From the IMG/VR virus record IMGVR_UViG_3300027822_000483, positions 1 through 33,559 of that record: DNA of 33,559 nucleotides; one strand, given 5' to 3'. The notes under the pieces are model-generated. The model made no database searches. It had not been told where the DNA came from and saw nothing but the letters and a program-made list of their open reading frames with translations. Every line of letters begins with the position of its first letter. Positions within the stretch are counted from its first letter, which is position 1. The translations under genes were made by a program, and so were the position numbers. Shown here piece by piece: positions 10,067-33,559 of this stretch. The stretch comes from a virus.

Positions 10067-10142
10067 CAACTGGCTTGAAATAGCATTTGTTCTCTGCTAC
10101 TTAGCTATAATACTTTATTTATTATACAATGGGAAGATCTGA
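10044..10142 (+). CDS. tiny single-TM peptide
   Basis: This 32-codon ORF (MKLIKIINNWLEIAFVLCYL then AIILYLLYNGKI) forms one hydrophobic segment of about 20 residues. It begins within the previous gene and its TGA overlaps the gpZ-like ATG (TGATG), the usual mark of coupled translation. It could be a small membrane peptide (holin-like or regulatory) or serve only to couple translation. Support is its position and composition. Confidence 0.4.
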   Translation: MKLIKIINNWLEIAFVLCYLAIILYLLYNGKI

Positions 10143-17437: not shown

Positions 17438-19433
17438 AGATTGGTTTAGCCGGTCAGCTACTATTAGAACTGAGTCTGTTAAAGCTGAAGACATGATTAT
17501 TGAAAAGGGAGTTCTTGCAACCGAACAGCCGGTCATTGTTTTTGATTGGTACAGATGGGAACCGGTAAGAGAAATATTATTGATGAAAGGTTGCCGGATT
17601 CCGGAAAACGGCCAAGTCCCTTTGCTCGATTCTCATTCCAGATATTCAACCGAAGAAATAAAGGGTTCTGTTAGAAATATAGTTGACGGTGTTGATGAAA
17701 AAGGCGAACCAATAATATTAGGTGATTACCATTTTGAGCGAGAAGCAAAACGAGAGTTTAACATGGTGCAAGATGAGCACCTAACAGATACATCCATTGG
17801 TTATAAAACATATGATGAACATACAATTGTTGTAGCTCCAAAAGAAAGAACTGAAATAGACGGTAAAGAATACCGTAATGATTATGGTGATGATTTTACA
17901 TTATTGATTAGGGAAGTGTGGGATCTTAAAGAAGATTCACTTGTTGCTATTGGCGCAGATGATAGAGCAAAGTTCAGGAGCGAATTTATAGACCTAAATA
18001 ACTTTCCGGTTAAAAACCTAAATAATGTTGATCCAAAAGAGATAGATGGAATTAAAAACAGCATTAAAGAATTAAATAATAGTGTGACAAAAATAATTTC
18101 AATAAAGGGAGATGGTCCAATGACTGAAGAAGAAAAAAAGAAATTTGCCGATGAAGCAATAGGAAAGAACAGGATTAGAGAAGAAAAAATCAATGATTTT
18201 GCTGGCAAATTCAAAGGCCAATTCAAAGATGAAAAGGCGGCAACTGAAAGAGCTATAAATGAGAACTGGGATGTAAATAAATTCAGAGATTATGTGCTCG
18301 ATAACCTTAACAATGGTGGCGCAGTTGAAACGCCAGCCACCGAAATTGGTATGACCAACCAAGAAGCGATTGATTTCTCAATTACAAAAGCATTGGATGC
18401 TGTTCTCAATAAAGATTGGTCAAAAGCCGGGAAAGAAAAAGAAGCACTTGATACAGTACACAAAAAGGTTGAACCAAAGAACGGTGGTATAGTATTGCCA
18501 AGAGAAGTTCAATTGGTTGGAGCAAATACAGCTAATAACTTAAATGCTAATTTCCGTTTGGCATTAGCACTTAATAATCGTGAGATGATGGAAAGAGCTT
18601 TGCAAGTTGCCACAGACTCTGCCGGTGGGTATTTGGTCGGAACAGAAAACAAAGGGGATGCTTTTATTGAAATGTTGCGAAACAAATCCGTATTAGGACA
18701 AGCCAGAATAACAATATTGTCTGGTCAGAAAGAAGATCTGGACATTCCAAAACAAGTTGGTTCTGCAACATTTAGTATGGTTGGAGAAGGTGGTGCAGCA
18801 AATCAAAGCTTCTTAACGCTTGGCCATGTAACTAGTACTCCAAAGACCGGAACAATAACTACAGAATATACAAGAAGATTATTGAGTAGATCTAACCCGG
18901 CAATTGATGGATTAGTATTATCAGATATTCTCGCATTAAACAGAAATGGATTAGACAACAAAGGCCTACATGGAACCGGCGTTGGGAATGATCCGGAAGG
19001 CATTGCAAATGTAACCGGCGTTGGAACGGTTGATATGTCAACTCCTAGTTGGCCTAAAATTGTTGAATTTGAAACAGATGTTGAAGATGCAAATGCAGAT
19101 ATTAATTCAATGGGCTGGATAACTAATCCATTGGTCAAAGGGAAAATGAAAACTGTTTTAAGGGAAACCGGAACTGGTAATTATTTAATGAATGATAGCG
19201 GTTTGATGAATAATTATCCATCACACATTACTAAGAATGCAAATTCTCAGCATTTATTCTTCGGTGTATGGAATCAGTTAATCTTAGTTGAGTATGGAAT
19301 ATTAGAGTTATTAGTAAATCCTTACGGTGAAAACTCAAGAGCCGGTAATGTTGAAGTAACAAGCTTTATTGATTTTGATTATATCTGCCGACATGCGGCT
19401 GCTTTTTCAATTTCAAGCAATGTTGGCTTATAG
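17406..19433 (+). CDS. fused prohead protease and major capsid protein
   Basis: This 675-residue polyprotein starts at ATG 17406, supported by AAGGTGAAGGA (GTG 17397 is possible). Residues ~1-200 form a prohead protease with catalytic His in VPLLDSHSR (H77) and a Ser in DTSIGYKT near 130. A charged helical delta/scaffold-like stretch (~225-330; MTEEEKKKFADEAI) follows. An HK97-fold capsid protein runs from ~385 on (GGYLVGTENKGDAFIEMLRN, then FSMVGEGGAANQSFLTLGHV and PSWPKIVEFETDVE). The protease probably cuts itself and the linker out during head maturation. Such fusions are known in some phages. A hairpin follows the stop. Confidence 0.92.
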   Translation: MNRKDLNKQYKDWFSRSATIRTESVKAEDMIIEKGVLATEQPVIVFDWYRWEPVREILLMKGCRIPENGQVPLLDSHSRYSTEEIKGSVRNIVDGVDEKGEPIILGDYHFEREAKREFNMVQDEHLTDTSIGYKTYDEHTIVVAPKERTEIDGKEYRNDYGDDFTLLIREVWDLKEDSLVAIGADDRAKFRSEFIDLNNFPVKNLNNVDPKEIDGIKNSIKELNNSVTKIISIKGDGPMTEEEKKKFADEAIGKNRIREEKINDFAGKFKGQFKDEKAATERAINENWDVNKFRDYVLDNLNNGGAVETPATEIGMTNQEAIDFSITKALDAVLNKDWSKAGKEKEALDTVHKKVEPKNGGIVLPREVQLVGANTANNLNANFRLALALNNREMMERALQVATDSAGGYLVGTENKGDAFIEMLRNKSVLGQARITILSGQKEDLDIPKQVGSATFSMVGEGGAANQSFLTLGHVTSTPKTGTITTEYTRRLLSRSNPAIDGLVLSDILALNRNGLDNKGLHGTGVGNDPEGIANVTGVGTVDMSTPSWPKIVEFETDVEDANADINSMGWITNPLVKGKMKTVLRETGTGNYLMNDSGLMNNYPSHITKNANSQHLFFGVWNQLILVEYGILELLVNPYGENSRAGNVEVTSFIDFDYICRHAAAFSISSNVGL

Positions 19434-19752: not shown

Positions 19753-20220
19753 ATGAAAATATTATTTGGAATTATTATGGTGTTGTTACTGTTTGGAGCA
19801 CAGTTAACGGCGCAAGTCAATTCAGTTGTAAAAATTGATAGTATTGCAAATTCCGGCACAGAAATATATTACTGTGATCTGGAAAACCTTGCTCCGTTTG
19901 ATTCAATTGTTTACAGCGTTTATGCAATGGGTGAAATTGATATTGACTCATTAGATGTTCAAGGTGGGTTCGATTTTCATCCGGTTACATATAAGGGAAG
20001 CGATGTAACCGGCATAAACATTTATGAAGCACTTGAAGGTGCAACTTTAACAATAAATAATGCTGATGGAACAGCAACTTATGTTGAAGGAGCGACCACA
20101 ATAACTAAGGCAGAGGCTAAAGGCTACAATAGACTTAAGGTAACAATTACAGCCGGCAGTTCAGGTAACGATGCAACGGATACTTATCAAAAAGTAATAA
20201 TAGTGCAAACGGTTTACTAA
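19753..20220 (+). CDS. signal-peptide protein in head gene block
   Basis: This 155-residue protein has a clear Sec signal peptide (MKILFGIIMVLLLFGAQLTA|QV, cut expected after residue 20). The mature part is beta-rich and Thr-rich with an Ig-like look (VTYKGSDVTGINIYEALEGATLTINN, then YNRLKVTITAGSSGND). Its position after the capsid suggests a head or decoration protein, yet export would keep it from cytoplasmic heads. It could instead be a secreted accessory protein or an uncleaved virion protein. The next gene starts at its stop (TAATG). Function unknown. Confidence 0.65.
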   Translation: MKILFGIIMVLLLFGAQLTAQVNSVVKIDSIANSGTEIYYCDLENLAPFDSIVYSVYAMGEIDIDSLDVQGGFDFHPVTYKGSDVTGINIYEALEGATLTINNADGTATYVEGATTITKAEAKGYNRLKVTITAGSSGNDATDTYQKVIIVQTVY

Positions 20221-20522
20221 TGTCAATTATTCCAATAGATGAATTTGTTAATACTGGTCTGGAAGATTCAATGACACCATTCGAATCTTCCAGTTCTATA
20301 AAAGGTCATTTTCATAATGAATACGACACACTTGGTTTACAACAAAGTTTTGATAGTTCAGATCCTTGGTATGAATGCAGATCCACCGACGTTGAAAGTT
20401 TACAAGAAGATTCAAAGGTAACAATTAATGTTTTGGCAACATCAGAGACGTTAAGTCTGAAAATTAAAAAAATATTACCGGATGGCATCGGACTTAGTAT
20501 AGTCCAATTATATAAATATTAA
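20220..20522 (+). CDS. FII-like head-tail connector
   Basis: This 100-residue beta-rich protein has a central SIKGHFHNEYDTLGLQQSFDSS, then WYECRSTDVESLQEDSKVTI, and an end KKILPDGIGLSIVQL. The order (G-x-F-x-N, C-R-x-x-D-V, then PDG-x-G) fits lambda FII-type head-tail joining proteins. Its place between the head genes and the U-like gene also matches. It is coupled to the upstream gene (TAATG). Family call is by pattern and position. Confidence 0.65.
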   Translation: MSIIPIDEFVNTGLEDSMTPFESSSSIKGHFHNEYDTLGLQQSFDSSDPWYECRSTDVESLQEDSKVTINVLATSETLSLKIKKILPDGIGLSIVQLYKY

Positions 20523-20560
20523 AATAGATTCCGGACAAACCGGGATTACAAGAAAAGAAT

Positions 20561-21043
20561 ATGACAAGAAGACAATCCATAGCAAACGATTTTATTACTA
20601 AAGCAAAAACAATAGTTACAGCCAATGGTTATTTAACTGATTTTGCGGAAAGTGAAATATCTCATTGGTTAGAAAGAGCATTAGGAAAAGATGATAAAAG
20701 ATATTTGAATATAAAAGATATGGATGGGGAAGGTACTGCAAGTAATGGATTTTATGAAGCAATAAAAATTAGAATTGAAATTGGTGGAATACCTAAAAAT
20801 ATAAATGATGGAAAAGATGTTCATACAATGATTACAAACATGATACATGATGTGAAAAAGATGGTTCATTCAAACATATCCTTCTTTGAAAACAAATATG
20901 GCTATTGGGTAATTGTTGCATTTGATGAAGATATTGAACCCAACTTTGATAAATCGACAGAAATGGCCGAAGGATGGGTAGAGTTTACAATTACTCATAG
21001 AGTAAACAATAAATGGACACCAGACAACAAAACAGATTATTAG
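20561..21043 (+). CDS. gpU-like tail terminator
   Basis: This 160-residue protein starts MTRRQSIANDFITKAKTIVT, like tail terminator (lambda U) proteins, followed by a tail region GWVEFTITHRVNNKWTP with the strand pattern of that family. It would cap the tail tube and meet the FII-like connector. It follows the connector by 38 bp and precedes the tube gene. No CCGG occurs in it, unlike most neighbours. The U assignment is tentative but fits the gene order. Confidence 0.65.
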   Translation: MTRRQSIANDFITKAKTIVTANGYLTDFAESEISHWLERALGKDDKRYLNIKDMDGEGTASNGFYEAIKIRIEIGGIPKNINDGKDVHTMITNMIHDVKKMVHSNISFFENKYGYWVIVAFDEDIEPNFDKSTEMAEGWVEFTITHRVNNKWTPDNKTDY

Positions 21044-21061
21044 AATGCCACTGGAGCATAT

Positions 21062-21589
21062 ATGCTAATCGGACAACATTTAAGCAAAATAAAAGATCGT
21101 CCTAGTAGGGAGATAAAAGAGGTCAAATCACCGGAAGATTTTGTTAGAGCTTATTTCTATGATGCTTTTAAGAGTAAGATATTAACCGGCGTACCGGTAT
21201 TGGTTACTCTAGCTCAAGGAGCTTTAGAAAGCGGATGGGGAAAATATGCAAAAGGTAACAACTTCTTTGGTGTTAAAGCTTTTAAGAGTTGGAAGGGTAA
21301 AAAGCAGTCATTAAAAACACATGAATATATAAAGGGAAAAAGAGTGAAAGTTGATGCTTGGTTTAGAGTTTATAAAACGCCAGCCGCTAGTTTCACGGAT
21401 CATGGGAAAGTGATAAAAAAGAATTGGCCTCATGCATTTCTATATACAGATCCTTTGGACTTTATAATAGCATTACAAAGTAACGGAAAGAAGAATTACG
21501 CTACAGACATAAAGTATGTAGAAAAAATGGGAAAGATTATACGGCGAATTAAGCAATTGATATTAGAGATAGAGAATATAAACATTTAA
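21062..21589 (+). CDS. glucosaminidase (GH73-like) lytic enzyme
   Basis: This 175-residue peptidoglycan hydrolase of the FlgJ/GH73 type cuts between GlcNAc and MurNAc. The core is VPVLVTLAQGALESGWGKYA with catalytic Glu at E56, then GNNFFGVKAFKSWKGKKQ, VYKTPAASFTDHGKVI and a conserved-looking Y near 148 (KNYATDIKYVEKMG). There is no signal peptide, so it needs a holin or acts as part of the virion. It sits between tail terminator and tube genes rather than at the lysis end, so a virion-associated cell-wall-opening role is a real option. GGAG precedes the ATG. Confidence 0.85.
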   Translation: MLIGQHLSKIKDRPSREIKEVKSPEDFVRAYFYDAFKSKILTGVPVLVTLAQGALESGWGKYAKGNNFFGVKAFKSWKGKKQSLKTHEYIKGKRVKVDAWFRVYKTPAASFTDHGKVIKKNWPHAFLYTDPLDFIIALQSNGKKNYATDIKYVEKMGKIIRRIKQLILEIENINI

Positions 21590-21604
21590 TAAGGAGAAAA
21601 TAAA

Positions 21605-22006
21605 ATGGCCTTAAACGATCCGGTTAGTGGTTTAGAGGGAAAGGCGCATTATGGCGCAACACCTACAGAAATTGATATAACTAAATGGGATTTTGAAAGA
21701 TCAACGGGTACAATTGACACAACAAGATCTAGTAATGCTTCAGCTGGATATCGCTCTAAAATTCCTAATGGTTTTATTGAGGGGAGCGGGAACATTGAAG
21801 GATTGGTTCTGCAGGGGGTTGATCTTCCAGCTATGGGTACTGTATTAACGATCAAATTAAGTTCTACACCAACAAGATTCTGGAGTGGCCCCGCAATAAT
21901 AACTAGGGTAGGCGAATCTTTAGATGTCCCAGGTGAAAATGCACAAGTAATTACCTTTGATTTTGTAACAACAGGTTTGTGGGAATTAACAGATACAACT
22001 ACTTAA
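21605..22006 (+). CDS. major tail tube protein
   Basis: This 133-residue protein is the subunit that stacks into the tail tube. The sequence MALNDPVSGLEGKAHYGATP, then VDLPAMGTVLTIKLSS and VITFDFVTTGLWEL shows the beta-barrel pattern common to siphovirus tube proteins. Strong AAGGAG precedes the ATG, as expected for a highly made protein. A strong hairpin follows (22024-22055). It sits right before the G/G-T chaperones and tape measure, as in lambda. Confidence 0.85.
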   Translation: MALNDPVSGLEGKAHYGATPTEIDITKWDFERSTGTIDTTRSSNASAGYRSKIPNGFIEGSGNIEGLVLQGVDLPAMGTVLTIKLSSTPTRFWSGPAIITRVGESLDVPGENAQVITFDFVTTGLWELTDTTT

Positions 22007-22023
22007 AGAATAATAGAGGTTAT

Positions 22024-22055
22024 AGACGTGGAGATGTATAAACGTTTCTACGTCT
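22024..22055. other. hairpin after the tail tube gene
   Basis: AGACGTGGAGA (22024-22034) pairs with TTTCTACGTCT (22045-22055) with two G-T pairs over a 10-nt loop, followed by TAAAATTATT. It lies between the tube gene and its downstream chaperone and may terminate some transcripts, raising tube levels above those of chaperone and tape measure. Confidence 0.5.
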
Positions 22056-22065
22056 TAAAATTATT

Positions 22066-22581
22066 ATGGACAGAAAAAGTATAAAAATAAAAATTAAATC
22101 AGGTGATTTTTCCTTTGCTGAACGCAACAAAAGGGATGTTGATTTTGTCACTTTACAAGAAAAGTTAAAAGACAAAAACTTTGCGTATATCCAGAAACAT
22201 GTTAATGATCAGGACGTACAGACAACTTTGTTAATGAGCGAAGTAGGTAAGGTTTACAGTTCACAAGAGATAATTGCATTTGTAGTAAGTGATAAAAGTC
22301 ATCAATTGAAATTTATTTATGATTCTTTCAAAATAAATAATCCGGATACATCTTTTGAGGATTTCCAAGATCTTATTTCTGAGGATGAAGTTCAAAAAGT
22401 ATTGGACTTGATATTAGAAATGGAAGGGGAGACCGAAGCAGAAATAAATAACTCTTATAAAGAATATTTAAAAACAAATAATGAAATATCATTGGTTGAT
22501 TTTTCAGAAAAATTACCAATGGCCGATCAGCACAAATTGGCTGAAATAATCCACCGGCAAGTAAAAAAAAAGAAGGATTAG
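22066..22581 (+). CDS. tail assembly chaperone (gpG-like)
   Basis: This 171-residue acidic, helical protein stops at 22579-22581 after a poly-Lys tail (QVKKKKD). It occupies the lambda gpG position between tube and tape measure and probably binds tube protein and tape measure during assembly. A slippery A AAA AAG lies 7 codons or fewer before its stop, and an extension frame continues without a stop into 22802, the hallmark of G/G-T chaperones. Sequence identity to known chaperones is low, as usual; the call rests on position plus the frameshift signal. Confidence 0.8.
   Translation: MDRKSIKIKIKSGDFSFAERNKRDVDFVTLQEKLKDKNFAYIQKHVNDQDVQTTLLMSEVGKVYSSQEIIAFVVSDKSHQLKFIYDSFKINNPDTSFEDFQDLISEDEVQKVLDLILEMEGETEAEINNSYKEYLKTNNEISLVDFSEKLPMADQHKLAEIIHRQVKKKKD
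22566..22572 (+). promoter_or_regulatory. -1 frameshift slippery site A AAA AAG
   Basis: In the gpG frame the codons are AAA (67-69) and AAG (70-72) preceded by A66, giving X XXY YYZ as A AAA AAG, the heptamer known from E. coli dnaX. A -1 slip moves reading into GAA GGA TTA GAA and stays open to 22802. The zero-frame stop is 7-9 bases later. No clear pseudoknot was seen downstream by eye. Confidence 0.85.
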
Positions 22582-22802
22582 AAGTATCTGCCGAAGTAGC
22601 AGATGCCTTATTGCTTGAAACTTATTCAGGATTAAAACCGGACGATTTACGCAATCTGACACAACGGCAATATAATTCACTGCTTAACCAGGTATCTAAT
22701 ATTTGTAATTATAAGTCCGGTGGTAAACTGGAAATGGAAACACCAAAAGATAGAATGTTGAGATTAAAAAAAATGGTTAATAATAAATTAAACAATGGCT
22801 AA
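22572..22802 (+). CDS. chaperone extension (gpT part of G-T fusion)
   Basis: This 76-residue extension (EGLEVSAEVADALLLETYSG, then LKPDDLRNLTQRQYNSLLNQ) joins gpG residue ~169 by the -1 frameshift to give a ~245-residue G-T protein, the minor form that recruits tape measure. A separate TTG start at 22611 has no ribosome binding site, so independent translation is unlikely. It overlaps the tape measure start by 8 bp. The charged end (METPKDRMLRLKKMVNNKL) fits a partner-binding region. Confidence 0.75.
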   Translation, partial: EGLEVSAEVADALLLETYSGLKPDDLRNLTQRQYNSLLNQVSNICNYKSGGKLEMETPKDRMLRLKKMVNNKLNNG

Positions 22803-25128
22803 AAAAAACACTATTGATATTACCTTTAATGCTAGGCTCGCTAAACTTGAGAGAAGAGTCGCTACGGCGGAAAAACGTGTAATATCTTCAACTGCCAGAA
22901 TGCAAAGGTCTGCAAATATGTTGGCTAATGCGACGCAACGTTTGCCTATGGCATTTGGCGGAGTAGCCGGTGCCGGTTTGGCGATGGGTCTTGTTATTAA
23001 AAAAGGAGTTGATTCTTTTATAAATCTTGAAGATGGAATGAGAAATGTTAATACCATTCTGAAACTATCCGAAAAAGAATTAGCCAGCTACACAAAACAA
23101 GTTGAAGCTTTACAATCTGAACTTGGTGTATCAACAGAAGATTTAACCAATGGATTGTATCAAACCGTTTCTGCCGGTGTTTCTGCCGGTGATGCTATAG
23201 AATTTTTAGGCATAGCTACAAAAGCTTCAATTGCGGGTATTAGCTCTGTAGAAACAGCAGTTGACGGACTAACCACCGTTTTGAATGCATTCCATTTAGA
23301 GACATCCGAGGCTACAAAAATATCCGATATTATGTTCCAAACAGTAAAATTAGGTAAAACTAATTTTGAGCAACTTGCATCTTCTATTTCAGAGTTTGCC
23401 CCAATGGCTTATTCGTTGGGTTTAAGTTTTGAACAAACAGCCGGTGCATTAGCAACAATAACAAAACAAGGTGTTTCTACAAGTCAAGCAGCTACACAGT
23501 TAAATGCAGTATTTACTGGTGTATTAAAAGGGCAGGAGCGTGCTCGTGGAATGAGTGAACAAGTTGCTGAAGCATTTTCCATACAAGCATTAAAAGCAAA
23601 GGGATTACAGAAATTCTTAGTGGATCTGGAATTTGCTCTTAATGGTGATCAAGAAGCGATGGTAAAATTATTTGGTAGAGCTGAAGCAGTTAAAGGAATG
23701 TTACAGTTAACAGGCGGAAATGCAAAAATGGCTGCCAAGGATTTAGACTCCATGAAGAACTCATCAAATGCTATGGGTGAAGCTTTTGCTGAGCAAGAGA
23801 AAAAAACTTCACGTAATGCAAGCAAGCTAAGCGAAAACGTAAACAAATTAGTCCAAACCTTTGCTAAGTTGGCAAAAACGCCAGTAACGAATGCAATATC
23901 CGGATTGGATGCATATTTAAAATATTACCTTAATTTATATGATGGAGTGACTGAAGTAATAGATAAAATATCGGAGAGTTTACCGAAACTGAAAGCTCAA
24001 TTGATAGAGGCCGGGCAAATTATGACTGGGAGCAGATCAAATCAATGGTATAGCAAAGGTTTAGATTTTAACGCTGGGCAATTTAGTAAAGATGATTTAG
24101 AAAACTTAAGAACTGGGAAAAGATTTATTCCCAGCCTTGGCATGGTAACTAATGATGATTTTGTGAAAGAGACAAACAATGATGCTAAAAGTTTAGTTAA
24201 AACATTCAATATGTATTCTGCAACTCAAGACGAAATAAATGATAAAATTACTGAGTTGAGGGATTTAAGAAAAGAATTAGTTGTGTGGTCTGGTAAGTAT
24301 ATACAGAATTTAGAGCAAGAAAAAAAACTAAGTAATTATTTAACCAGCAAACCGGTTAAATACTCTCCAATTGGGAATGTGTCCGGAATTATGATGCAAG
24401 ATCAAAATATAACTGCTGATAATGCGGATGTTTGGTTGAAAAAAATAATGCGTACGCCGGATATAAGGTTTACTCAAAGGAATGAAGAAAACACAGGTTC
24501 AAGGAAAGCATTAGTTCTTGATTGGATAGAGCAGAGTTTTGCAGAACAAGATCGTTTGTTTAATCGTATGTATAATAATGCCAGTGAACTTGGGTTTGCT
24601 TTAGAAGATGCATTTTCCGGGCATGGAAAAACTCTATTATCAAGTATGAATCAAGCATTGCAAATTGCATTAAGAATTAGCGATGCGCTAAGAAAAGACG
24701 ATGGAACCTTTGCCGGTGGTTTGGGCACTGCGGCCTCGATTGTTCCGGGTGCTAGTTTCATATGGGATTTATTCGGTGGTGGAAAAGCCGGCGGCGGCCA
24801 TACTTCTCCTATGAAATTTTATGAAGTAAATGAAAAGGGAATTGAGGGTCTTTCCGTAAATGGTCATGACTATTTAATGATGGGTGCAAATAGTGGATAT
24901 ATAACACCAAACGAAAGGATAAGTATGTCTGGCTTCGGTAGTAAGGCTAATAACGATATGAAAGAAACAAACGAAATGTTGGAAGTGCAAAATATGTTAT
25001 TGCAAAATTTAAGCGAAGCTTTTGATAGAGGTATAAACAGCACTACACTAAATGCAAGAGTGACTAACCGACAGATATATTTTAGTAATAAGAAAGGTTC
25101 AAATATTTATAAGAGATATCACGGATAA
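22795..25128 (+). CDS. tail tape measure protein
   Basis: This 777-residue protein sets tail length and travels with DNA. It has a charged N-terminal coiled coil (about 5-50), then a TP901-type core with hydrophobic helices (AFGGVAGAGLAMGLVIKKG) and FEQLASSISEFAPMAYSLGL, ALATITKQGVSTSQAATQLN, KLFGRAEAVKGMLQLTGGNA. A Gly-rich stretch near 640-665 (DLFGGGKAGGGHTSP) leads to the C-terminal part. The order and motifs match TP901-family tape measures. At the usual ~0.15 nm per residue the tail would be roughly 115-120 nm. It follows the G-T gene with an 8-bp overlap. Confidence 0.92.
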   Translation: MAKKNTIDITFNARLAKLERRVATAEKRVISSTARMQRSANMLANATQRLPMAFGGVAGAGLAMGLVIKKGVDSFINLEDGMRNVNTILKLSEKELASYTKQVEALQSELGVSTEDLTNGLYQTVSAGVSAGDAIEFLGIATKASIAGISSVETAVDGLTTVLNAFHLETSEATKISDIMFQTVKLGKTNFEQLASSISEFAPMAYSLGLSFEQTAGALATITKQGVSTSQAATQLNAVFTGVLKGQERARGMSEQVAEAFSIQALKAKGLQKFLVDLEFALNGDQEAMVKLFGRAEAVKGMLQLTGGNAKMAAKDLDSMKNSSNAMGEAFAEQEKKTSRNASKLSENVNKLVQTFAKLAKTPVTNAISGLDAYLKYYLNLYDGVTEVIDKISESLPKLKAQLIEAGQIMTGSRSNQWYSKGLDFNAGQFSKDDLENLRTGKRFIPSLGMVTNDDFVKETNNDAKSLVKTFNMYSATQDEINDKITELRDLRKELVVWSGKYIQNLEQEKKLSNYLTSKPVKYSPIGNVSGIMMQDQNITADNADVWLKKIMRTPDIRFTQRNEENTGSRKALVLDWIEQSFAEQDRLFNRMYNNASELGFALEDAFSGHGKTLLSSMNQALQIALRISDALRKDDGTFAGGLGTAASIVPGASFIWDLFGGGKAGGGHTSPMKFYEVNEKGIEGLSVNGHDYLMMGANSGYITPNERISMSGFGSKANNDMKETNEMLEVQNMLLQNLSEAFDRGINSTTLNARVTNRQIYFSNKKGSNIYKRYHG

Positions 25129-26361
25129 ATGGAACAATCTGTTAAAATAATATTTGGCGAAAAAGTTGTTGGTGATGATACAATTGAAATTCAGTTGATT
25201 TTTGAATACAACAACGGATCTAGCATTGTTGAAAAAACCGCCGAAGACGTTCGGGTGAAAATTACGAATTACGGAAATTTGGAATTGCAATTTGACATGA
25301 ATGATTATTTGTTGGTGCCAAGTTCTTACCACTTGCAAATTGGAGATCTTGATAATTATTTAGAGAACAAAGTGTTTTCTCCAAATGAATATAACTTAGA
25401 AATTACTTGTAAGGTATTTATAAACAGTGAGCTAGAATTTGAAGGTAAACATACGGAAGAATCTATACTATACGATGATAAACACTTAGATTTAGAATTT
25501 ACAAGCAATACCAACATACTTTTTGAGACCATGTTGTTTGATTCATCCGGTGGAAGTAAAAACCCTATTGGGTTAGGTAGTGGCGTTGGTAATTCGTCTT
25601 CATTAAATGAAGCTATTCATGATTGTTATAGGCTAATTAATTCCAACATTGTTTTTGAAGTAAACCATGATTGGAATTATTACGGTATTACGCATTATGT
25701 AACCGGTACACAAAAAACACTTTATGATGGAACTTGGAGCGAACTTTATACTAACTATGATGAATTTTACAATGGAGAAAGTTTAGGTGATACACTAATA
25801 GCTTTAGCTAAAAGAAAATTTGCATTTACCGGAGTTGTTAATAACAGCAATGCCTTCTTTCAAAAACTATACTACTATAACGAAAACAATCTGCAATCGC
25901 TAAATATTAAAAAATGTATTAGAGGGATTGGTTATCCAAAACTTTTATATGTAGCTACGAAAAACGCTGATGGTTCGGTTTTATTTGAACTGCCAGACAA
26001 AGAGTCTTATATAAATGTATCTGATAAATCACTGGAGATTCCAATTACTTGGATTCCGGGGCAAGTTACAAATGATTGGATATTTAGAAACGGCGATTAT
26101 TACTACACCGAACAAATGAAGGACAATATTCTTGGATCAACGTTTTATCCGCCATATGAGATTCAGCCAAGATTACATTATCACCATAGGAATACAAACG
26201 TTAAAAATTGGTTAGACACTCTTATCCATAAAGGGTTAAGTGTAAACTATTTGAAAAACTTCCATTATGAAAATAGAAAATATCAAATCCTCAGTCTTAA
26301 CAAGTTGATAGAGGCCGGTACAACTAATATTGAAGCATTGTATTTGGGTGAGGTGACTTAA
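25129..26361 (+). CDS. distal tail protein, hypothetical
   Basis: This 410-residue beta-rich protein lies directly after the tape measure (1 bp after its stop), where distal tail and hub proteins are encoded. Early strands (VKIIFGEKVVGDDTIEIQLI) and DVRVKITNYGNLELQFDMND look like a compact beta-sandwich; later parts are mixed. No specific family is recognised. It is coupled to the next gene (TAATG) and is probably a tail-tip structural protein that joins tube to the fibres. Confidence 0.6.
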   Translation: MEQSVKIIFGEKVVGDDTIEIQLIFEYNNGSSIVEKTAEDVRVKITNYGNLELQFDMNDYLLVPSSYHLQIGDLDNYLENKVFSPNEYNLEITCKVFINSELEFEGKHTEESILYDDKHLDLEFTSNTNILFETMLFDSSGGSKNPIGLGSGVGNSSSLNEAIHDCYRLINSNIVFEVNHDWNYYGITHYVTGTQKTLYDGTWSELYTNYDEFYNGESLGDTLIALAKRKFAFTGVVNNSNAFFQKLYYYNENNLQSLNIKKCIRGIGYPKLLYVATKNADGSVLFELPDKESYINVSDKSLEIPITWIPGQVTNDWIFRNGDYYYTEQMKDNILGSTFYPPYEIQPRLHYHHRNTNVKNWLDTLIHKGLSVNYLKNFHYENRKYQILSLNKLIEAGTTNIEALYLGEVT

Positions 26362-26861
26362 TGAGTGTTTTTGGGACATCAGGGAATACAAGGTTTGAAT
26401 ATAATTCTACTGAACAAATAATTATCAATAATGTTATCACAAGGTTTGAACCGGTAATTATTGAAAGGCGAATTGAGGATAACTTGGATGGATCAATTGA
26501 TATAGACCATATTGGCGAAAGATACATATTTGAATGCAAAAGTTATGTGGGTGAAGAAAAACAATATATTGATGAGTTTAATAGACTCTACCAATTCAAC
26601 CACAAAAAAGTTTATTGTGCGCCATTTTCTGAAGGAGAATATTTCCAAAACTTAAATGGTGAAAAAGTTCTTTGTTTGCTAAAGATAAAATGGGGTTGGT
26701 TAAAAACAAGGAAATATTACGACATATTAACTTTCTCATTCGAGACGTTAAAGGTAGTTGATTTAAGCAAAATGGTATTGTCAAATAAAGTTAGAGTAGA
26801 TCCAGTTAGCGGAATGGTAAGAATAAATCCGAATACCGGTAAAGCAAGAGTCGCACCATAA
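26361..26861 (+). CDS. tail-tip protein, hypothetical
   Basis: This 166-residue protein is coupled to the preceding gene and has a mixed alpha/beta body (VITRFEPVIIERRIEDNLDG, GERYIFECKSYVGEEK). It ends in three short similar pieces (KVRVDPVSG, MVRINPNTG, KARVAP), a repeat-like tail that could wrap or bind neighbours. There is no signal peptide. By position it is a tail-tip component; no family is recognised. Confidence 0.5.
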   Translation: MSVFGTSGNTRFEYNSTEQIIINNVITRFEPVIIERRIEDNLDGSIDIDHIGERYIFECKSYVGEEKQYIDEFNRLYQFNHKKVYCAPFSEGEYFQNLNGEKVLCLLKIKWGWLKTRKYYDILTFSFETLKVVDLSKMVLSNKVRVDPVSGMVRINPNTGKARVAP

Positions 26862-26876
26862 AACAAGGAATATGAT

Positions 26877-28184
26877 ATGTGGAATATTAAAATTATAACT
26901 ATAATAATATTTTTATCATCTTTGCTGATAAACGCACAAAGCTATCCCGGTGATCCTTCTGAATACACTAAGTTAACCAATGAACCGGCCGATAAGCAGA
27001 AAACATACATTGAGGTTTATGATTATAGTGATCCTAACAATCCTAAGATTTACATTTATTCTTATGAGAAATTTGCTGAATTATTGGGTGTTAGTGGGGA
27101 TCAATCAATTGATGGTACATATAGTTTCTTAAATGCAATCCAATTGGCAGAACTAGCAAGTACAACGACAAACAACGGAATATTCATTAACACATCAACC
27201 GGTCAAATTGCTCAATATAAAAACGGTGCAATAATAAACTATGCAACTACAAATGATCTTGTTCAGCATGGGCTTGTTGATAGTAATCATGTTGTTTATG
27301 ATAATGCAAACGACACACTTTTTGCAACATACTTAGTAACCGGTATTTTTGATATAAGAAACGGTGTTTGGTATATGCCATATTCGTCCTCTTTGCTATC
27401 TGATTCTTTAAGTGGGAATATGAGATTTTACTTTTCAGACCAAGATTCTTTGTTACACCTTAATGCAAAGAATTCTGATAATGACAAATATAGAGTTGAT
27501 TTTGTAACAAAGGCTTGGATAGATAAACAAGGATTCGGATCTGCAAATCTATCCTATTGGTTAGCTAATGGCGATCAAAGCGGATTGCAAGGTGAAAAGA
27601 AAATATCTACCGGGAAAATTAGGTATACAAGTTCAGCAACTGGATTTAGTAGTAGTAATGCAAGATCTGGAATTGTTTCGGTAACTAGTTTGCCAAATAT
27701 AACGGATGCGGATGTTTATGTTGGAGATGTCTTTAGTCTTGGTGGTCAAAATGATACTGACGGTAGTGGATTGCAATTAAACTCATTATATGTTGTTGGT
27801 CTTGATCAAGATTACAATAAATTTTGGATTAAATTTATTGATGAAGAAAAAGTTAAGAGGCTCGATGCAAAAATACTTAGTTCAAATGCACCCACAACTT
27901 TCTCACAGTCTACTGACACGCTAGACTTTTCAAATAAAAACTACATAGCCGGGATCTATGGTGCTCAGGGTGCTCAGACGATTGACGTTATAAACTATAG
28001 CTCAGGTTGGGTTTCGTTTACTATTTATAGTCAGGATGCAGTAACAATAAATATTCCCGGTGTAACAATTGATTGGGTAGGTGATCCTAATGAAAATAAT
28101 CCAAATTTTGGAGTTGGTGAATATGTAGAAGTAGTTTTGAAATATATTACTTCCACAGTTGCTAAAGGGAGTTATTCATGGTAA
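26877..28184 (+). CDS. signal-peptide tail fibre-like protein
   Basis: This 435-residue protein begins with a Sec signal peptide (MWNIKIITIIIFLSSLLINA|QS, cut after 20). The mature part has a helical segment (LLGVSGDQSIDGTYSFLNA), then a long beta-rich region (SGIVSVTSLPNITDADVYVG) and a beta-sandwich-like end (QTIDVINYSSGWVSFTIYSQ). It overlaps the big spike start by 7 bp. Likely a fibre or fibre base; whether it is exported before assembly, or the leader stays on, cannot be told. No enzymatic motif found. Confidence 0.6.
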   Translation: MWNIKIITIIIFLSSLLINAQSYPGDPSEYTKLTNEPADKQKTYIEVYDYSDPNNPKIYIYSYEKFAELLGVSGDQSIDGTYSFLNAIQLAELASTTTNNGIFINTSTGQIAQYKNGAIINYATTNDLVQHGLVDSNHVVYDNANDTLFATYLVTGIFDIRNGVWYMPYSSSLLSDSLSGNMRFYFSDQDSLLHLNAKNSDNDKYRVDFVTKAWIDKQGFGSANLSYWLANGDQSGLQGEKKISTGKIRYTSSATGFSSSNARSGIVSVTSLPNITDADVYVGDVFSLGGQNDTDGSGLQLNSLYVVGLDQDYNKFWIKFIDEEKVKRLDAKILSSNAPTTFSQSTDTLDFSNKNYIAGIYGAQGAQTIDVINYSSGWVSFTIYSQDAVTINIPGVTIDWVGDPNENNPNFGVGEYVEVVLKYITSTVAKGSYSW

Positions 28185-31100
28185 AGAAAATATTTTTACT
28201 GCTATTACTTTCTTTTAGTCTGTACGGACAACCTCATTTGCTTTTACCGCAGATAAGAAAAGCAAATATCTACACGCTAACACCAACGGTTAATATAAAT
28301 TATGGCGATAGTGATTCTTTGATTTCTATTATGTTTACTCACTCAATGGGCTTTAATCCTTTTATAATTGAGGGAATAGATCTTTCAGACACAAACGTAA
28401 TTGCTCTGTTGCCTAATACTGAATTGGTTGCTGATTCTAATGGAATTTTTTCTGATACAACGACGATTGGGGATTGGGGAACAGAGGGCGGTGCATCGCT
28501 TACGAATAATTCAGATAGTACAGCAACTTTTAGCAACGTGGCTGCTAATAAGGATAGTGCAAAAATAGTTCTTGCGACTGAAGGTATGCAAAAAAATCAA
28601 TTCTATAATTTGAGTGTTGATGTGAAAGAGGGGGAGTCCATATTTTATGAAAGTGATTTTAGCTTAGGTACGGACGGTTTTTCTAATTCAAATAATTCCG
28701 TAGTAGATGGTAATATTGATAAAGTTACAGATGGATCAACCTCTTATGATAATGTGCTTGCTATATCTATTTATGATCAAACAAACACAACACATAGAGC
28801 CCAAAAAGATTTATCTCAAACAGTTAATAAGTGGTATTATTTTGAAATAGAATATCTTTTTCCGTCTTCAAATTCTCACGCAAATGGTTTTTCCTTAGCA
28901 AATAGTGCATGGGGTATATCACACAATCCTGCTAATGGTTCTGTTATTGGCACATGGACAAAGTTTACAGCAAAAGTGAAAGCGGAAGATGTTTACACAA
29001 CAAGAATATATTTAACTGATGATGCAGTTTCTACTTTTACTGATGATGCTAATCTTGATACGTTATATATAGCTAATTTTAAATTATACGAATTAGAAGA
29101 TAGTTCTCAAACAATAAAGGAAGGAAAATTAATTTGGCAATATTATTCAGAAGATCTAGTATTTGAAGAAGATTCTACAGATCAGTTAACATCTACAGAT
29201 TCAACTTATAGCTTTTCTATTCTTGGCAAAGAAGCAGATAATCATTATAGTTTTGATGGAGATGACTATATAACATTTAATCCTTTTAATTATGATAGTA
29301 CAGATGCTTATTCACTAAGAATTGTATTTTCCTATGACTTAGAAAACAACACAACAAATTCGTATTATTTAATGGGTAGAAATGGTTATAAAGATTTTAT
29401 AAAATTTGTTGAGCGACCTAGTGATAGTGATTATATCCAATTTGAAAATTGGACAGATGAAACAACAACAGGGTATAGTGAAATAAGTGGTTTACATGAA
29501 AATAAATTAGAATATGTTTATGTATACAATGGTAATGGTACTGTAAAATGGTATTACAATGGAGATAGCATAGGTGTTGCAACGAATTATGATGGAAAAA
29601 TTCAAGGAGTTGAAGAAATAGGCAGGGGATATGGAGGTGGAAGTGATCACAGAGGAAATATTTATATTTTTAATAGATATAACAGAGCATTGTCAAATAC
29701 AGAAGTAAGTAATCTTTATTTAAAAATTGATATATCTACAGATAGCTTAAAAATAGACTTTAACGGAACAAGTGGTAATGTTTCATTCTCTCAATGGACA
29801 GATGATACAGGAAATAATCATGGAACAGTTAATGGAGCAACGGCAGAAAAGTATCCCCGATTTTCATTAAGCTTAACTGAGAATGCAAAAGCAACAATGG
29901 ATAATTTCTCTGTAAAAGAGAATTACTATAAGGTTGTTGTTGAGCATGGCGACACAATTTCAAGGGGTGTTATAGTAAAGGGTGATGTTTTAGGAAGTCA
30001 TTCCGTTAACTTGATTGTTAATAATACAACTCAAAAGGGTGAGGATACTTTAGCAGTTAGTGTCAATGTTGAAAATCTTAACAGTTTGGTTGCAGATGCT
30101 ATTGATTTTGATACTGTTACAACAGCAACTGTTATTTTCCCTTGGATAAAAAACTTATCAGCTAGCACATTAAATATCACAAGCTATTCTGGATTAAATG
30201 CCCCTTTTTATTCCAACTCTGCAAGGCATGTGAGTTCATTAGCTCCGGGAGATTCTACTCAATTAGAAATATATTTCAATCCAATATCGGCAAATGGTGC
30301 ATTTATTGATACTTTTATTATTACTCATAATGGTAATGGAAGTCCGATGGAATGGACTATTCAAGGTGTAGCTAACTTGCCGCTTGAAAATTTATTGTCA
30401 GCACCAACAGAACTCACTGCTTCAAATGGTGATGGTTCTATAGATCTTTCTTGGAGTGATCCTAATATTCCAGATACATTAGAATATATTAGTTATGATT
30501 TTACAAATCAATCTGATACAATAGATTGGAAACCACGTCATGGTGAACCAAAAGAAAGAGTTATTGAAAATGGAAAAATGAAAACTTTTGATGATAATTT
30601 AGGTACTGCTTGGCCTTCAACTGTTTTAATGGTATCTGTAAATTCAACAGATACATATAGATTTTCAGTTGATGCTGAAGTTGGTACAGCCAATTCAGTA
30701 TGGTTTGTTATAATCAATAAAAATACAAGAGAATATTATGTTAATTATCAATCAACAAAAGATACTGTATATACAGCAACATTAAGTAATATTTCAGGCA
30801 CTGATTCATTAGAGATATATTTACAGTGTGTCACAGATAATGGAGAATATTCATATTTCGATAATTTTTTAATAGAAAAAACTTATCCTAGTTATGACGG
30901 ATATGAAATTTATGCACAGAAATTTTTGAACGGATCAGTTGATATTCCTTATTATCTTTTAGAATATGTATTAGGCGGTGGTTTATCATATTCGCATTCT
31001 GTTAGTGATGGTGATGAATATAGCTATAAAGTAAGATATAAAAATAATACTGACTATTCTCCATTTTCTAATGAAGATACCCTTTTGTATTCTGCTCCTA

Positions 31101-33037
31101 GTATATATGCTGATTATTACGTCAAAGCAACAGGTACTAATACTACTTTTTCAACAGCGACAGAAATTGGTAGCGAAATGGATATGGCAACTTTTGAAGC
31201 CGGTTGGGTGGCAAATCTTTCTGTAAATGATTTAGTACATTTTTCTGGTGATTTCGAAAAAGAATATGTATACGGAGTAACAGCAGTAAATTCCACAGCA
31301 TGGGATTTTATCAATCTTCCAAATGGTGTAAAATTCTTTTCTACAGATAAGGCTAAATTCACTGTTTACCAAGAACTTTATGGATGGGATAATACTAGTC
31401 ATTGGGTATTGGATAATACTACCTACAGTGATGGTACAACATTCTGGACATATGATTTTAGTGATTTTGGTTATTATGACCTTGAAGAAACTGGATGTTC
31501 AAGACTTTGGTTTGATGATAAAGAAACGCCAATGTGGTTAAGCCCGGACATTTCTGCTGAAGGATCTACGGTAGCTGCTACTGGGGCAGCAAAAGATTCA
31601 ACATTTGGTAGGCCTAATGCAAACTATAGATTTACAATTAACAAATATGATATGGCGGCAGTACGAGAAGTTCATGTTTGGGATTCGGCAGGTATAAACC
31701 CCGCTACTAAATATAATTCAATTAAACATATAGGTGGTTTTAAGCAATTAATCAATTTCGAAAATACAGATAATTTAACTGTAGACGGATTAGTATTTGA
31801 AGGTTCTGATTTCTTTACAGTTACCTTTAAGAATTGTGATAATGTTACTTTTTCTAATAGCTACATCACAAAATTTGAGTATATGGCAATAAGATTTAAT
31901 GATTGTGCAACTGTAACTATGTTTGGAGATTCTATTTATTCTGGATATGCTGATGTAAGTGGTACTGGTCATATTTACTATGAATATTTTTCAGCAAACA
32001 ATGGTTTAGATGTACAAAACTCTACTTCAAATATCGATATATATGATTCTTGGCTTATGGATATTACAACAATGCCTTTCCGAGTAATATCATCAACAGG
32101 TAATACGACCAATGTTCGCTTCCATAATAATGTAATAGGAACAAATATCACGATGGATTATGCCCGACCTTATCAGATTGGTGAAAGTACAGCTGGTGCA
32201 TCTTATTATCCTAGCAATATTCATATCTATAATAATCTCATGAAAAATGGGACTATGCGGACAAAAAATATTGCACAGTATACTTACACCTATTTTAACA
32301 CTTTTGTAGACTGGACAAATTTCAAAGATTCGATAAGTCATCATTTTAATTCAACTGGTGGATGGGATAAACCAGCTCCCGCTGGAATGGGAAATAGCTT
32401 TCAATTTGGACATACAAGCGGAACTGCATTAAGTGCGGTAGCTAATGAACATTGGTTTTTTAATAACACTTATCTTAATTTTAATGCAACTCCAATCAGT
32501 TATGAAAGTAAATATCAAAGAGCAATCCCGTTGTACTGGATTAACAACGCATTTATAAATATGAGTAGGAAGCACGTTAAGAAAGGTACTGGTCATCCAA
32601 GTTTTACCAATGCTACCGGTGATATAGATTTTCTAATCAGTGAACAAGGAAATTCACCTTTTATACTAAGAAATAATTATATCTGGAATGATCAGACAGT
32701 TGATACTTATGATTCAACTATAGTGTACGGTCAATACAATGGATCTACTTTTACTCCGAATTATTATTCTTTAAGTGGTTTTGAATCAGCCTTAGTAGCT
32801 AATGACACCGCTACTAACAATATAAAAGAAACTAATGTTGCTAAAACTTTAAGCAATATAATAAACACAACTACTTATGAAATGCAAACTACCTCAGCAC
32901 AAGATAACGGTTATATGGATTCACGAATATTAACTATCCTTGGTCCCAATTTCTTTGATCGGTTTGGAAACAGAGTAACAAATGCTGACGGAACTCTTTA
33001 TAATTCTCAAATAAATAGAGGTTCAAATAATAAGTGA
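28178..33037 (+). CDS. 1619-residue multidomain receptor-binding spike
   Basis: Signal peptide MVKKIFLLLLLSFSLYG|QP (1-17). Then a jelly-roll/CBM-like domain whose ends (~85-153 and ~562-580, closing with ATMDNFSVKEN) flank an inserted block (~154-561) that includes a LamG-like lectin (~358-520; HYSFDGDDYITF, YIFNRYNRALS). Next come an Ig-like choice-of-anchor-D domain (~630-738; LAPGDSTQLEIYFNP), an FN3 (starts ~740, SAPTELTASNGDGSIDLSWS) interrupted by a CBM-like insert (~768-905), FN3 end (YDGYEIYAQ to ~970), and a right-handed beta-helix spike (~975-1619). It probably binds surface glycans or proteins and may cut them. The CCGG-free 28.06-30.24 kb suggests transferred DNA. Function is inferred from domains. 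Confidence 0.8.
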   Translation: MVKKIFLLLLLSFSLYGQPHLLLPQIRKANIYTLTPTVNINYGDSDSLISIMFTHSMGFNPFIIEGIDLSDTNVIALLPNTELVADSNGIFSDTTTIGDWGTEGGASLTNNSDSTATFSNVAANKDSAKIVLATEGMQKNQFYNLSVDVKEGESIFYESDFSLGTDGFSNSNNSVVDGNIDKVTDGSTSYDNVLAISIYDQTNTTHRAQKDLSQTVNKWYYFEIEYLFPSSNSHANGFSLANSAWGISHNPANGSVIGTWTKFTAKVKAEDVYTTRIYLTDDAVSTFTDDANLDTLYIANFKLYELEDSSQTIKEGKLIWQYYSEDLVFEEDSTDQLTSTDSTYSFSILGKEADNHYSFDGDDYITFNPFNYDSTDAYSLRIVFSYDLENNTTNSYYLMGRNGYKDFIKFVERPSDSDYIQFENWTDETTTGYSEISGLHENKLEYVYVYNGNGTVKWYYNGDSIGVATNYDGKIQGVEEIGRGYGGGSDHRGNIYIFNRYNRALSNTEVSNLYLKIDISTDSLKIDFNGTSGNVSFSQWTDDTGNNHGTVNGATAEKYPRFSLSLTENAKATMDNFSVKENYYKVVVEHGDTISRGVIVKGDVLGSHSVNLIVNNTTQKGEDTLAVSVNVENLNSLVADAIDFDTVTTATVIFPWIKNLSASTLNITSYSGLNAPFYSNSARHVSSLAPGDSTQLEIYFNPISANGAFIDTFIITHNGNGSPMEWTIQGVANLPLENLLSAPTELTASNGDGSIDLSWSDPNIPDTLEYISYDFTNQSDTIDWKPRHGEPKERVIENGKMKTFDDNLGTAWPSTVLMVSVNSTDTYRFSVDAEVGTANSVWFVIINKNTREYYVNYQSTKDTVYTATLSNISGTDSLEIYLQCVTDNGEYSYFDNFLIEKTYPSYDGYEIYAQKFLNGSVDIPYYLLEYVLGGGLSYSHSVSDGDEYSYKVRYKNNTDYSPFSNEDTLLYSAPSIYADYYVKATGTNTTFSTATEIGSEMDMATFEAGWVANLSVNDLVHFSGDFEKEYVYGVTAVNSTAWDFINLPNGVKFFSTDKAKFTVYQELYGWDNTSHWVLDNTTYSDGTTFWTYDFSDFGYYDLEETGCSRLWFDDKETPMWLSPDISAEGSTVAATGAAKDSTFGRPNANYRFTINKYDMAAVREVHVWDSAGINPATKYNSIKHIGGFKQLINFENTDNLTVDGLVFEGSDFFTVTFKNCDNVTFSNSYITKFEYMAIRFNDCATVTMFGDSIYSGYADVSGTGHIYYEYFSANNGLDVQNSTSNIDIYDSWLMDITTMPFRVISSTGNTTNVRFHNNVIGTNITMDYARPYQIGESTAGASYYPSNIHIYNNLMKNGTMRTKNIAQYTYTYFNTFVDWTNFKDSISHHFNSTGGWDKPAPAGMGNSFQFGHTSGTALSAVANEHWFFNNTYLNFNATPISYESKYQRAIPLYWINNAFINMSRKHVKKGTGHPSFTNATGDIDFLISEQGNSPFILRNNYIWNDQTVDTYDSTIVYGQYNGSTFTPNYYSLSGFESALVANDTATNNIKETNVAKTLSNIINTTTYEMQTTSAQDNGYMDSRILTILGPNFFDRFGNRVTNADGTLYNSQINRGSNNK

Positions 33038-33049
33038 GAAGGGGAATAT

Positions 33050-33271
33050 TTAATACTGCATCCCAGCTTTTAATCTTAACTGATCTAATTGCCTTAGGAT
33101 ATTTTCAATTTTCTCGACTTCTTCACGAGCGAATTGAATGTCGAACTGAACGTTTGTTTTCTCCACTTCGAAATAGTTCGAAACGTAAAGTCTGTGAAAT
33201 TCGAGTAGTTCAGGCTCTCTTTCTGTTAATTGTTTTATTTCAGCTCTATCGCCGAGTGTTAATTGTTTCAT
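33050..33271 (-). CDS. small coiled-coil protein on the minus strand
   Basis: This 73-residue protein is acidic and helical (MKQLTLGDRAEIKQLTEREP, then FDIQFAREEVEKIENILRQL) with a coiled-coil pattern at about 40-68. The composition looks coding, unlike the basic, Arg/Leu-rich frame on the + strand at 33034-33345, which is its shadow. It is the only convincing minus-strand gene. No ribosome binding site was found upstream on that strand. It is convergent with the spike gene. A tail-fibre chaperone or lysis-control role is possible but not shown. Confidence 0.5.
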   Translation of the reverse strand: MKQLTLGDRAEIKQLTEREPELLEFHRLYVSNYFEVEKTNVQFDIQFAREEVEKIENILRQLDQLRLKAGMQY

Positions 33272-33310
33272 GGTTAATCAAAATATTGTATTGCGAAAAT
33301 AAGGAAAAAT

Positions 33311-33559
33311 ATGGAATTTCTGAAAGAGTGGTGGTTTATAATTAGTCCGATAGGAATAGGGATCATGATAGGATTAAAATATTTTTTTAGTCAAATGATA
33401 TTCAAGCCAATAAAAGAAAATAAGGATGCTATTGAACATCAAAACCGGAATTACAATAAAAAGTTTGATGAAACCCATGAAAAACTGGATGGAATAACTA
33501 AAGAAACTGCTAACAATGCAGGAAAATTAGATGCAATTATTGAGTTAATAAAAAAATAG
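33311..33559 (+). CDS. holin-like single-TM protein
   Basis: This 82-residue protein has one N-terminal hydrophobic segment (about 7-30; WWFIISPIGIGIMIGLKYFF) followed by a polar coiled coil (DAIEHQNRNYNKKFDETHEK). AAGGAA precedes the ATG. The layout fits small phage holins or hemolysin-XhlA-like proteins, and its position after the fibre genes fits a lysis role. No spanin or endolysin follows in the window; the GH73 enzyme at 21062 could be its partner. It ends exactly at the window edge with TAG. Confidence 0.55.
   Translation: MEFLKEWWFIISPIGIGIMIGLKYFFSQMIFKPIKENKDAIEHQNRNYNKKFDETHEKLDGITKETANNAGKLDAIIELIKK

What the first reader, a model, noticed from the sequence alone, without database searches (positions are those of the whole stretch)
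19753..33037. Three virion-locus proteins with Sec signal peptides ending before Gln
The proteins at 19753, 26877 and 28178 each open with a basic n-region, a hydrophobic core and A|Q or G|Q cut site. Q at +1 is a trait reported for secreted Bacteroidota proteins. Phage structural proteins normally assemble in the cytoplasm and lack leaders. Possible meanings: spike and fibre are exported and bind virions outside or at lysis; they act as surface adhesins of the lysogen; or the leader inserts as a membrane anchor.
Basis: partly seen in the sequence, partly recalled or inferred. Interest (0 to 1): 0.65.

Follow-up and report, generated by a model that had tools for sequence, protein, structure and literature searches.

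The report
Phage tail proteins with export signals
Three proteins encoded among this phage's particle-building genes really do carry the export tag of bacterial secreted proteins, and similar tags sit on tail proteins that public records list as detected in the particles of cultured marine phages, so some phages may finish their tails outside the cell interior.

Summary
Of 43 window proteins, exactly three (19753, 26877, 28178) score as Sec signal peptides, cut before Gln (A|Q, A|Q, G|Q). Shuffled proteins predict 0.0025 such cases. The related contig L008 has a homologue of the 19753 protein with its own A|Q leader. More distant viruses and prophages have a leader-bearing 142-161 aa protein near the capsid genes. 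The premise that virion proteins lack leaders does not hold for flavophages: four cultured Cellulophaga phages, siphoviruses and a podovirus, encode 13 leader-bearing tail-end proteins (12 with Gln at +1) that their records list as found in virions by MS/MS. The same pectate-lyase domain occurs with a leader in some phages and with a leaderless N-terminus in others, so the leader is an interchangeable, maintained module. None has a type IX sorting tail. Best reading: fibre and spike are exported to the periplasm, cleaved, and join virions at lysis. Virion presence in this phage, cleavage and timing are inferred. Leaders on flavophage genes had been noticed before; the link with virion proteomics was not found in the papers searched.

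The parts
19753..20220 (+). 155-aa leader-bearing protein encoded just after the capsid gene; mature part about 135 aa, no named family
   Evidence: translation and scorer; homologue with leader in L008, mature-to-mature blastp E 1e-4
19753..19812 (+). Sec leader, 20 aa, predicted cut A|Q
26877..28184 (+). 435-aa leader-bearing protein, probable tail fibre (by position after the tape-measure block)
   Evidence: no family hit
26877..26936 (+). Sec leader, 20 aa, predicted cut A|Q
28178..33037 (+). 1619-aa leader-bearing protein, probable tailspike or adhesin: Ig-like domain near residues 657-730, weak right-handed beta-helix at 1177-1324
28178..28228 (+). Sec leader, 17 aa, predicted cut G|Q
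28178..28184 (+). 7-base overlap of the 28178 start with the 26877 stop, tying both leader genes into one operon
   Evidence: coordinates; sequence
12646..14715 (+). terminase large subunit (GpA type), used to find relatives
   Evidence: Pfam GpA_ATPase E 4e-47
15890..17437 (+). portal protein
   Evidence: Pfam Phage_portal_2 E 5e-66
17397..19433 (+). protease-capsid fusion (major head protein)
   Evidence: phrog_617 E 9e-68
22795..25128 (+). tail tape measure protein
   Evidence: phrog_991 E 2e-45
33034..33559 (+). two small membrane proteins directly after the spike gene, possible lysis genes
   Evidence: hydrophobicity scan; no family hit

Best explanation
The three proteins are made late with the virion genes, sent through the host Sec translocon, and cut by signal peptidase I before a Gln, which host glutaminyl cyclase would turn into pyroglutamate. 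They fold in the periplasm while heads and tails assemble in the cytoplasm. When the inner membrane fails at lysis, the 26877 fibre and the 28178 spike bind the tail tip and complete the virion. The small 19753 protein is exported the same way and most likely either decorates the particle or guards the envelope; its role is open. Shown: the leaders, the Gln at +1, conservation of the leader on a homologue, and the annotation of comparable leader-bearing tail proteins as virion components in other phages. Inferred: cleavage, periplasmic folding, attachment at lysis, and virion presence in this phage.
For: Leaders far above chance. The homologue of 19753 in L008 keeps an A|Q leader although TerL is only 35-37% identical. 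A sequence family of five 142-161 aa proteins next to capsid or portal genes in a viral contig and prophages all have leaders, four with Gln at +1. Prophage G247 (L159) has the window's double arrangement: a head-locus A|Q protein and, after the tape measure, a leader-bearing (S|Q) protein with tail-fibre similarity. In Cellulophaga phages phi10:1, phi19:1, phi39:1 and phi18:3, 13 leader-bearing tail-end proteins (12 with Gln) are recorded as detected in virions by MS/MS. Related mature segments follow different leaders, and a leader cassette is 95-100% alike in sipho- and podoviruses. No T9SS tail, so export would end in the periplasm.
Against: No mature-sequence homology between window 26877 and the Cellulophaga fibres; only the leader aligns. 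The MS/MS evidence is taken from record notes; the source paper is not held, so co-purified periplasmic protein cannot be excluded. The relative L103 has a fibre-like gene without a leader and no head-locus leader gene. Many phages of this host group have no leader on tail proteins: phi18:1, phi38:1, 11b, B124-14, P12002S, RAP44 and others. How an exported fibre would find the tail is unknown.
Confidence: 0.55

Rival explanations
1. The proteins are exported but are not virion parts. They act in the periplasm or envelope during the late phase: they shield or occupy the receptor so that progeny are not wasted on debris, exclude other phages, or degrade surface polysaccharide to free progeny.
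For: Phages do export such proteins: lambda's Lom, encoded beside the tail fibre genes, and Bor were found by the same scorer, and T5's Llp lipoprotein blocks FhuA (PMC9586334). The head-locus leader gene is movable and absent from L103, which fits an accessory gene. Fits 19753 best.
Against: Comparable leader-bearing fibres and lyases are recorded in virions. A multi-domain 1619-aa protein is unlike known exclusion proteins. No lipobox, no T9SS tail, so reaching the outer surface before lysis is unexplained.
Confidence: 0.27
2. The leader is not used for export. The proteins assemble into tails in the cytoplasm and the hydrophobic N-terminus stays on the protein, as an assembly or membrane-docking segment.
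For: Would fit normal cytoplasmic tail assembly and the MS/MS records.
Against: Gln at +1 recurs in the window (3 of 3) and in the MS-recorded proteins (12 of 13), which has meaning only if the leader is cut. Different leader sequences precede related mature segments, so what is kept is export function rather than a docking sequence.
Confidence: 0.11
3. The two large proteins are surface adhesins of the lysogen, or captured bacterial secreted proteins with a bacterial function.
For: Ig-like and beta-helix domains are common in secreted proteins of this host group (general knowledge; weak hits).
Against: No T9SS sorting domain while a neighbouring-genome control has one at E 1e-11; the genes overlap and lie between the tape-measure block and small membrane proteins on the same strand; no integrase recognised among the proteins scanned.
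Confidence: 0.05

Closest known systems
Leader-bearing tail-end cassettes of Cellulophaga phages phi10:1, phi19:1, phi39:1, phi18:3, phi46:3, Nekkels and Ingeline
   Same: Consecutive large tail-end genes, each with a short Sec leader and Gln at +1; four of these phages have MS/MS virion annotation
   Different: Mature sequences are not homologous to the window's; the window also has a leader gene in the head module
Bacteroidetes Q-rule signal peptidase I substrates (Bochtler 2018, PMC5837995)
   Same: Cut site, Gln at +1; mean Q-value 71% in Bacteroidetes and 77% in Ignavibacterium album
   Different: Described for cellular proteins; the text held has no mention of phage
Q-rule genes of Porphyromonas gingivalis Nixviridae phages (PMC10367356)
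   Same: Phage genes with leaders predicted to obey the Q-rule
   Different: Five genes of unknown function, read there as likely to modify the host outer membrane; not linked to virion fibres
Nekkels and Ingeline lyases (PMC8776804)
   Same: Lyase-domain tail proteins noted as carrying signal peptides
   Different: Mentioned in one clause, without Gln at +1, virion proteomics or a mechanism
Lambda Lom and T5 Llp
   Same: Phage-encoded exported envelope proteins
   Different: Lom is an outer membrane protein and Llp a lipoprotein; neither is a virion fibre

Membership tests
Q-rule signal peptidase I substrate | Basic n-region, hydrophobic core, small residue at -1 | tested here: met
Q-rule signal peptidase I substrate | Gln at +1 | tested here: met
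   3 of 3; chance expectation 0.0025 proteins
Q-rule signal peptidase I substrate | Mature N-terminus is pyroglutamate | not testable with these tools
   needs proteomics
Q-rule signal peptidase I substrate | Host belongs to a Q-rule lineage | tested here: inconclusive
   TerL relatives lie in an Ignavibacteriales MAG and in other genomes of its phylum; 4 of 5 leaders in about 70 kb of that MAG have Gln; the window's own host is not known
Phage tail fibre or tailspike (26877, 28178) | Position after tape measure and distal tail genes, before lysis genes | tested here: met
Phage tail fibre or tailspike (26877, 28178) | Recognisable fibre or beta-helix domain | tested here: inconclusive
   28178: Beta_helix E 0.007, below the curated cut-off; 26877: none; AlphaFold model of the 28178 C-terminal part unusable, pLDDT 35
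Phage tail fibre or tailspike (26877, 28178) | Present in virions | not testable with these tools
   uncultured phage
Cellulophaga leader-bearing fibre cassette | Homologous mature proteins | tested here: not met
   only the leader aligns; tblastn of 26877 and 28178 against phages gives nothing
T9SS cargo or surface adhesin | C-terminal sorting domain (TIGR04183) | tested here: not met
   no hit for the window proteins; positive control hits at 1e-11
Llp-type exclusion lipoprotein | Lipobox with Cys at +1 | tested here: not met
   Gln at +1, no lipobox
Head-locus leader protein family (L102, G377, G247, G220) | Sequence homology of the mature part | tested here: not met
   window mature part E 0.62 against the profile; the window pairs only with L008, E 1e-4

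The most novel reading that the evidence does not exclude
A group of phages of Bacteroidota and Ignavibacteriota does not finish its virions in the cytoplasm. Adhesive fibres and depolymerases are exported through Sec, matured in the periplasm with pyroglutamate N-termini, and added to tails of unrelated types at or after lysis. The fibres could then be shared between virions of different phages released from the same cell.
Probability: 0.4. Interest if true: 0.85.

Novelty: new variant of a known kind. Interest (0 to 1): 0.62.

Why it matters
Tail fibres decide which hosts a phage can bind, and textbook tail assembly takes place in the cytoplasm. If fibres are exported and join particles at lysis, then tail completion, fibre folding (oxidising periplasm, host proteases) and fibre exchange between phages follow different rules in a major host group of gut, marine and soil phages. 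It also gives a simple sequence mark, a Sec leader with Gln at +1 next to tail genes, for finding receptor-binding proteins where homology fails, as it does here for 26877.

Tried and rejected
Direct relatives: tblastn of the three proteins against phage records and pattern scans of IMG/VR gave nothing, nor did single-sequence TerL and portal scans; alignments of TerL were needed. AlphaFold models of 19753 (pLDDT 42) and of the C-terminal part of 28178 (pLDDT 35) were too poor to use or to search by fold. PDB sequence searches: none. NCBIfam and Pfam: nothing informative for 19753 and 26877. Considered and rejected: chance leaders; wrong start codons; T9SS cargo; lipoprotein. A claim that 19753 belongs to the L102/G377 sequence family was tested and dropped. 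The source paper of the Cellulophaga virion proteomics could not be read.

Full report
WHAT WAS CHECKED. The three leaders are there as described: 19753 MKILFGIIMVLLLFGAQLTA|Q, 26877 MWNIKIITIIIFLSSLLINA|Q, 28178 MVKKIFLLLLLSFSLYG|Q. SignalP is not among the tools, so I wrote a simple scorer (hydrophobic core, basic n-region, -3/-1 residues). It names exactly these three among 43 window proteins as strong leaders, and it puts the cut at the same site when the bonus for Gln is switched off. Shuffling the residues of each protein gives 0.19 proteins above the cut-off and 0.0025 with Gln at +1. On lambda the same scorer finds Lom, Rz and Bor on annotated genes, a few stray opposite-strand frames, and no tail fibre.

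CONTEXT. The window is part of a tailed phage, by its tape measure a long-tailed one: primase and helicase, terminase, portal, a protease-capsid fusion, endolysin, tape measure. Leader gene 19753 follows the capsid gene. Leader genes 26877 and 28178 follow the tape-measure block, overlap by 7 bases, and are followed by two small membrane proteins. The 28178 protein has an Ig-like and a weak beta-helix match; the other two match nothing. No integrase was recognised among the proteins scanned.

RELATIVES OF THIS PHAGE. No close relative is held. Terminase alignments led to IMG/VR contigs L008, L101 and L102 and to an Ignavibacteriales MAG, L103, at 34-44% identity. L008 has, between a head-tail joining gene and the portal, a 170-aa protein with an A|Q leader; its mature part matches that of 19753 (blastp E 1e-4). 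L102 has a 161-aa A|Q protein in the same place. A terminase search of 395 genomes of the MAG's phylum gave prophages; one, in G377, has a 150-aa A|Q protein next to the capsid gene. That protein led to three more, in G247, in a second prophage of G377 with contractile-tail-like genes, and in G220. L102 and these four form one sequence family, all with leaders, four with Gln and one with Ala at +1 by the scorer. The window and L008 pair with each other but not significantly with that family (window E 0.62), so the link is by size, place and leader only. L103 lacks the gene, so it is accessory.

THE SAME DOUBLE PATTERN ELSEWHERE. Prophage G247 (L159) has the head-locus leader protein and, downstream of its tape measure, a second leader-bearing gene (MKRIIIFLLLFGPTILLS|Q) cut by the contig end, with weak to moderate matches to tail and tail-fibre families (best named: phrog_9574 tail protein 6.5e-5, phrog_7389 tail fibre 2.8e-4).

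VIRION EVIDENCE FROM CULTURED PHAGES. Cellulophaga phage phi10:1 has five consecutive tail-end genes, gp091 to gp095, all with leaders and Gln at +1; the record states that gp091 to gp094 were found by MS/MS. The same holds for phi19:1 gp101 to gp103, with gp104 having Lys at +1, phi39:1 gp25 and gp26, and phi18:3 gp085 to gp087. That is 13 leader-bearing proteins, 12 with Gln, in three siphoviruses and one podovirus. The names include pectate lyase and tail fibre. Phages phi46:3, Nekkels and Ingeline carry similar cassettes. These are annotations in records; the source paper is not held, and co-purification of periplasmic protein is possible.

THE LEADER IS A MODULE. The pectate-lyase domain of phi19:1 gp102 recurs at 44-49% identity in phi17:2 and phi14:2, where the protein begins with a different N-terminal segment and no leader. 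The leader-bearing N-terminal part of gp102 is 95-100% alike in some siphoviruses and podoviruses. Related mature segments follow different leaders (phi10:1 gp092 against phi19:1 gp101). So leaders are kept for function, and phages switch between two ways of presenting the same enzyme. The trait is not universal: phi18:1, phi38:1, phi17:2, phi14:2, 11b, B124-14, P12002S, RAP44, P2559S and P12024S have no leader with Gln on annotated tail genes in the stretches scanned.

WHERE EXPORT WOULD END. NCBIfam finds no T9SS sorting domain in the window proteins or in the Cellulophaga proteins tested, while a secreted amylase-like protein beside one of the hits has it at E 1.4e-11. Without it, and without a lipobox, the expected destination is the periplasm, where the protein would wait until lysis. 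This is inference.

HOST. The nearest terminases in genomes are in Ignavibacteriales and other genomes of that phylum. Ignavibacterium album has a Q-value of 77%, Bacteroidetes average 71% (PMC5837995); 4 of 5 strong leaders in about 70 kb of the MAG have Gln at +1. A Q-rule host is likely; the exact host is unknown.

KNOWN BEFORE. The Q-rule is known (PMC5837995). Q-rule leaders on P. gingivalis phage genes of unknown function were reported in 2023 (PMC10367356). Nekkels and Ingeline lyases were noted as carrying signal peptides (PMC8776804). In contrast, a study of Bacteroides phage DGR target proteins found no leaders (PMC6199706). I found no paper in the library that joins leaders, Gln at +1 and virion proteomics, but subscription papers are largely missing from it.

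VERDICT. Observation confirmed; the export-then-attach reading is favoured at 0.55, mainly by analogy with Cellulophaga phages whose mature proteins are not homologous to these.

Noticed in passing
window 2528-3379: DUF7666 protein (E 9e-32) with a run of near-identical SSGDSSKLA / SSGYSSQLA repeats in its middle.
   Followed up: no
window 21062-21589: Endolysin gene (phrog_3513 E 4e-40) lies between head-closure-like and major-tail-like genes, far from the small membrane proteins at the end of the window.
   Followed up: no
window 10142-10663: Neck1 / tail completion type gene (phrog_27 E 1e-21) lies upstream of the terminase genes rather than after the capsid; L101, L102 and L103 show a similar gene at this place.
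   Followed up: partly
window 617-1234: 205-aa protein with several hydrophobic stretches near the left end, no Pfam or PHROG match.
   Followed up: no
L160/L161 (G377:C4): A prophage with contractile-tail-like genes carries the same head-locus A|Q protein family as prophages with other tail genes, so the family crosses tail types.
   Followed up: partly
L088 23531-23845, L092 973-1332: Small proteins outside the virion block of phi10:1 and phi19:1 also have leaders with Gln at +1.
   Followed up: no
L129 45363-45806 (Flavobacterium phage FCL-2 gp71): Leader with Gln at +1 on a small protein whose mature start reads VGIATTTPTETLDVNG, away from the annotated tail genes.
   Followed up: no
L104 (rest of the L102 contig), reverse strand, 333-848 of the reversed locus: A 171-aa protein between major-tail-like and tape-measure genes opens with a hydrophobic stretch followed by TYPQTSTGW; leader status unclear because Pro precedes Gln.
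   Followed up: no
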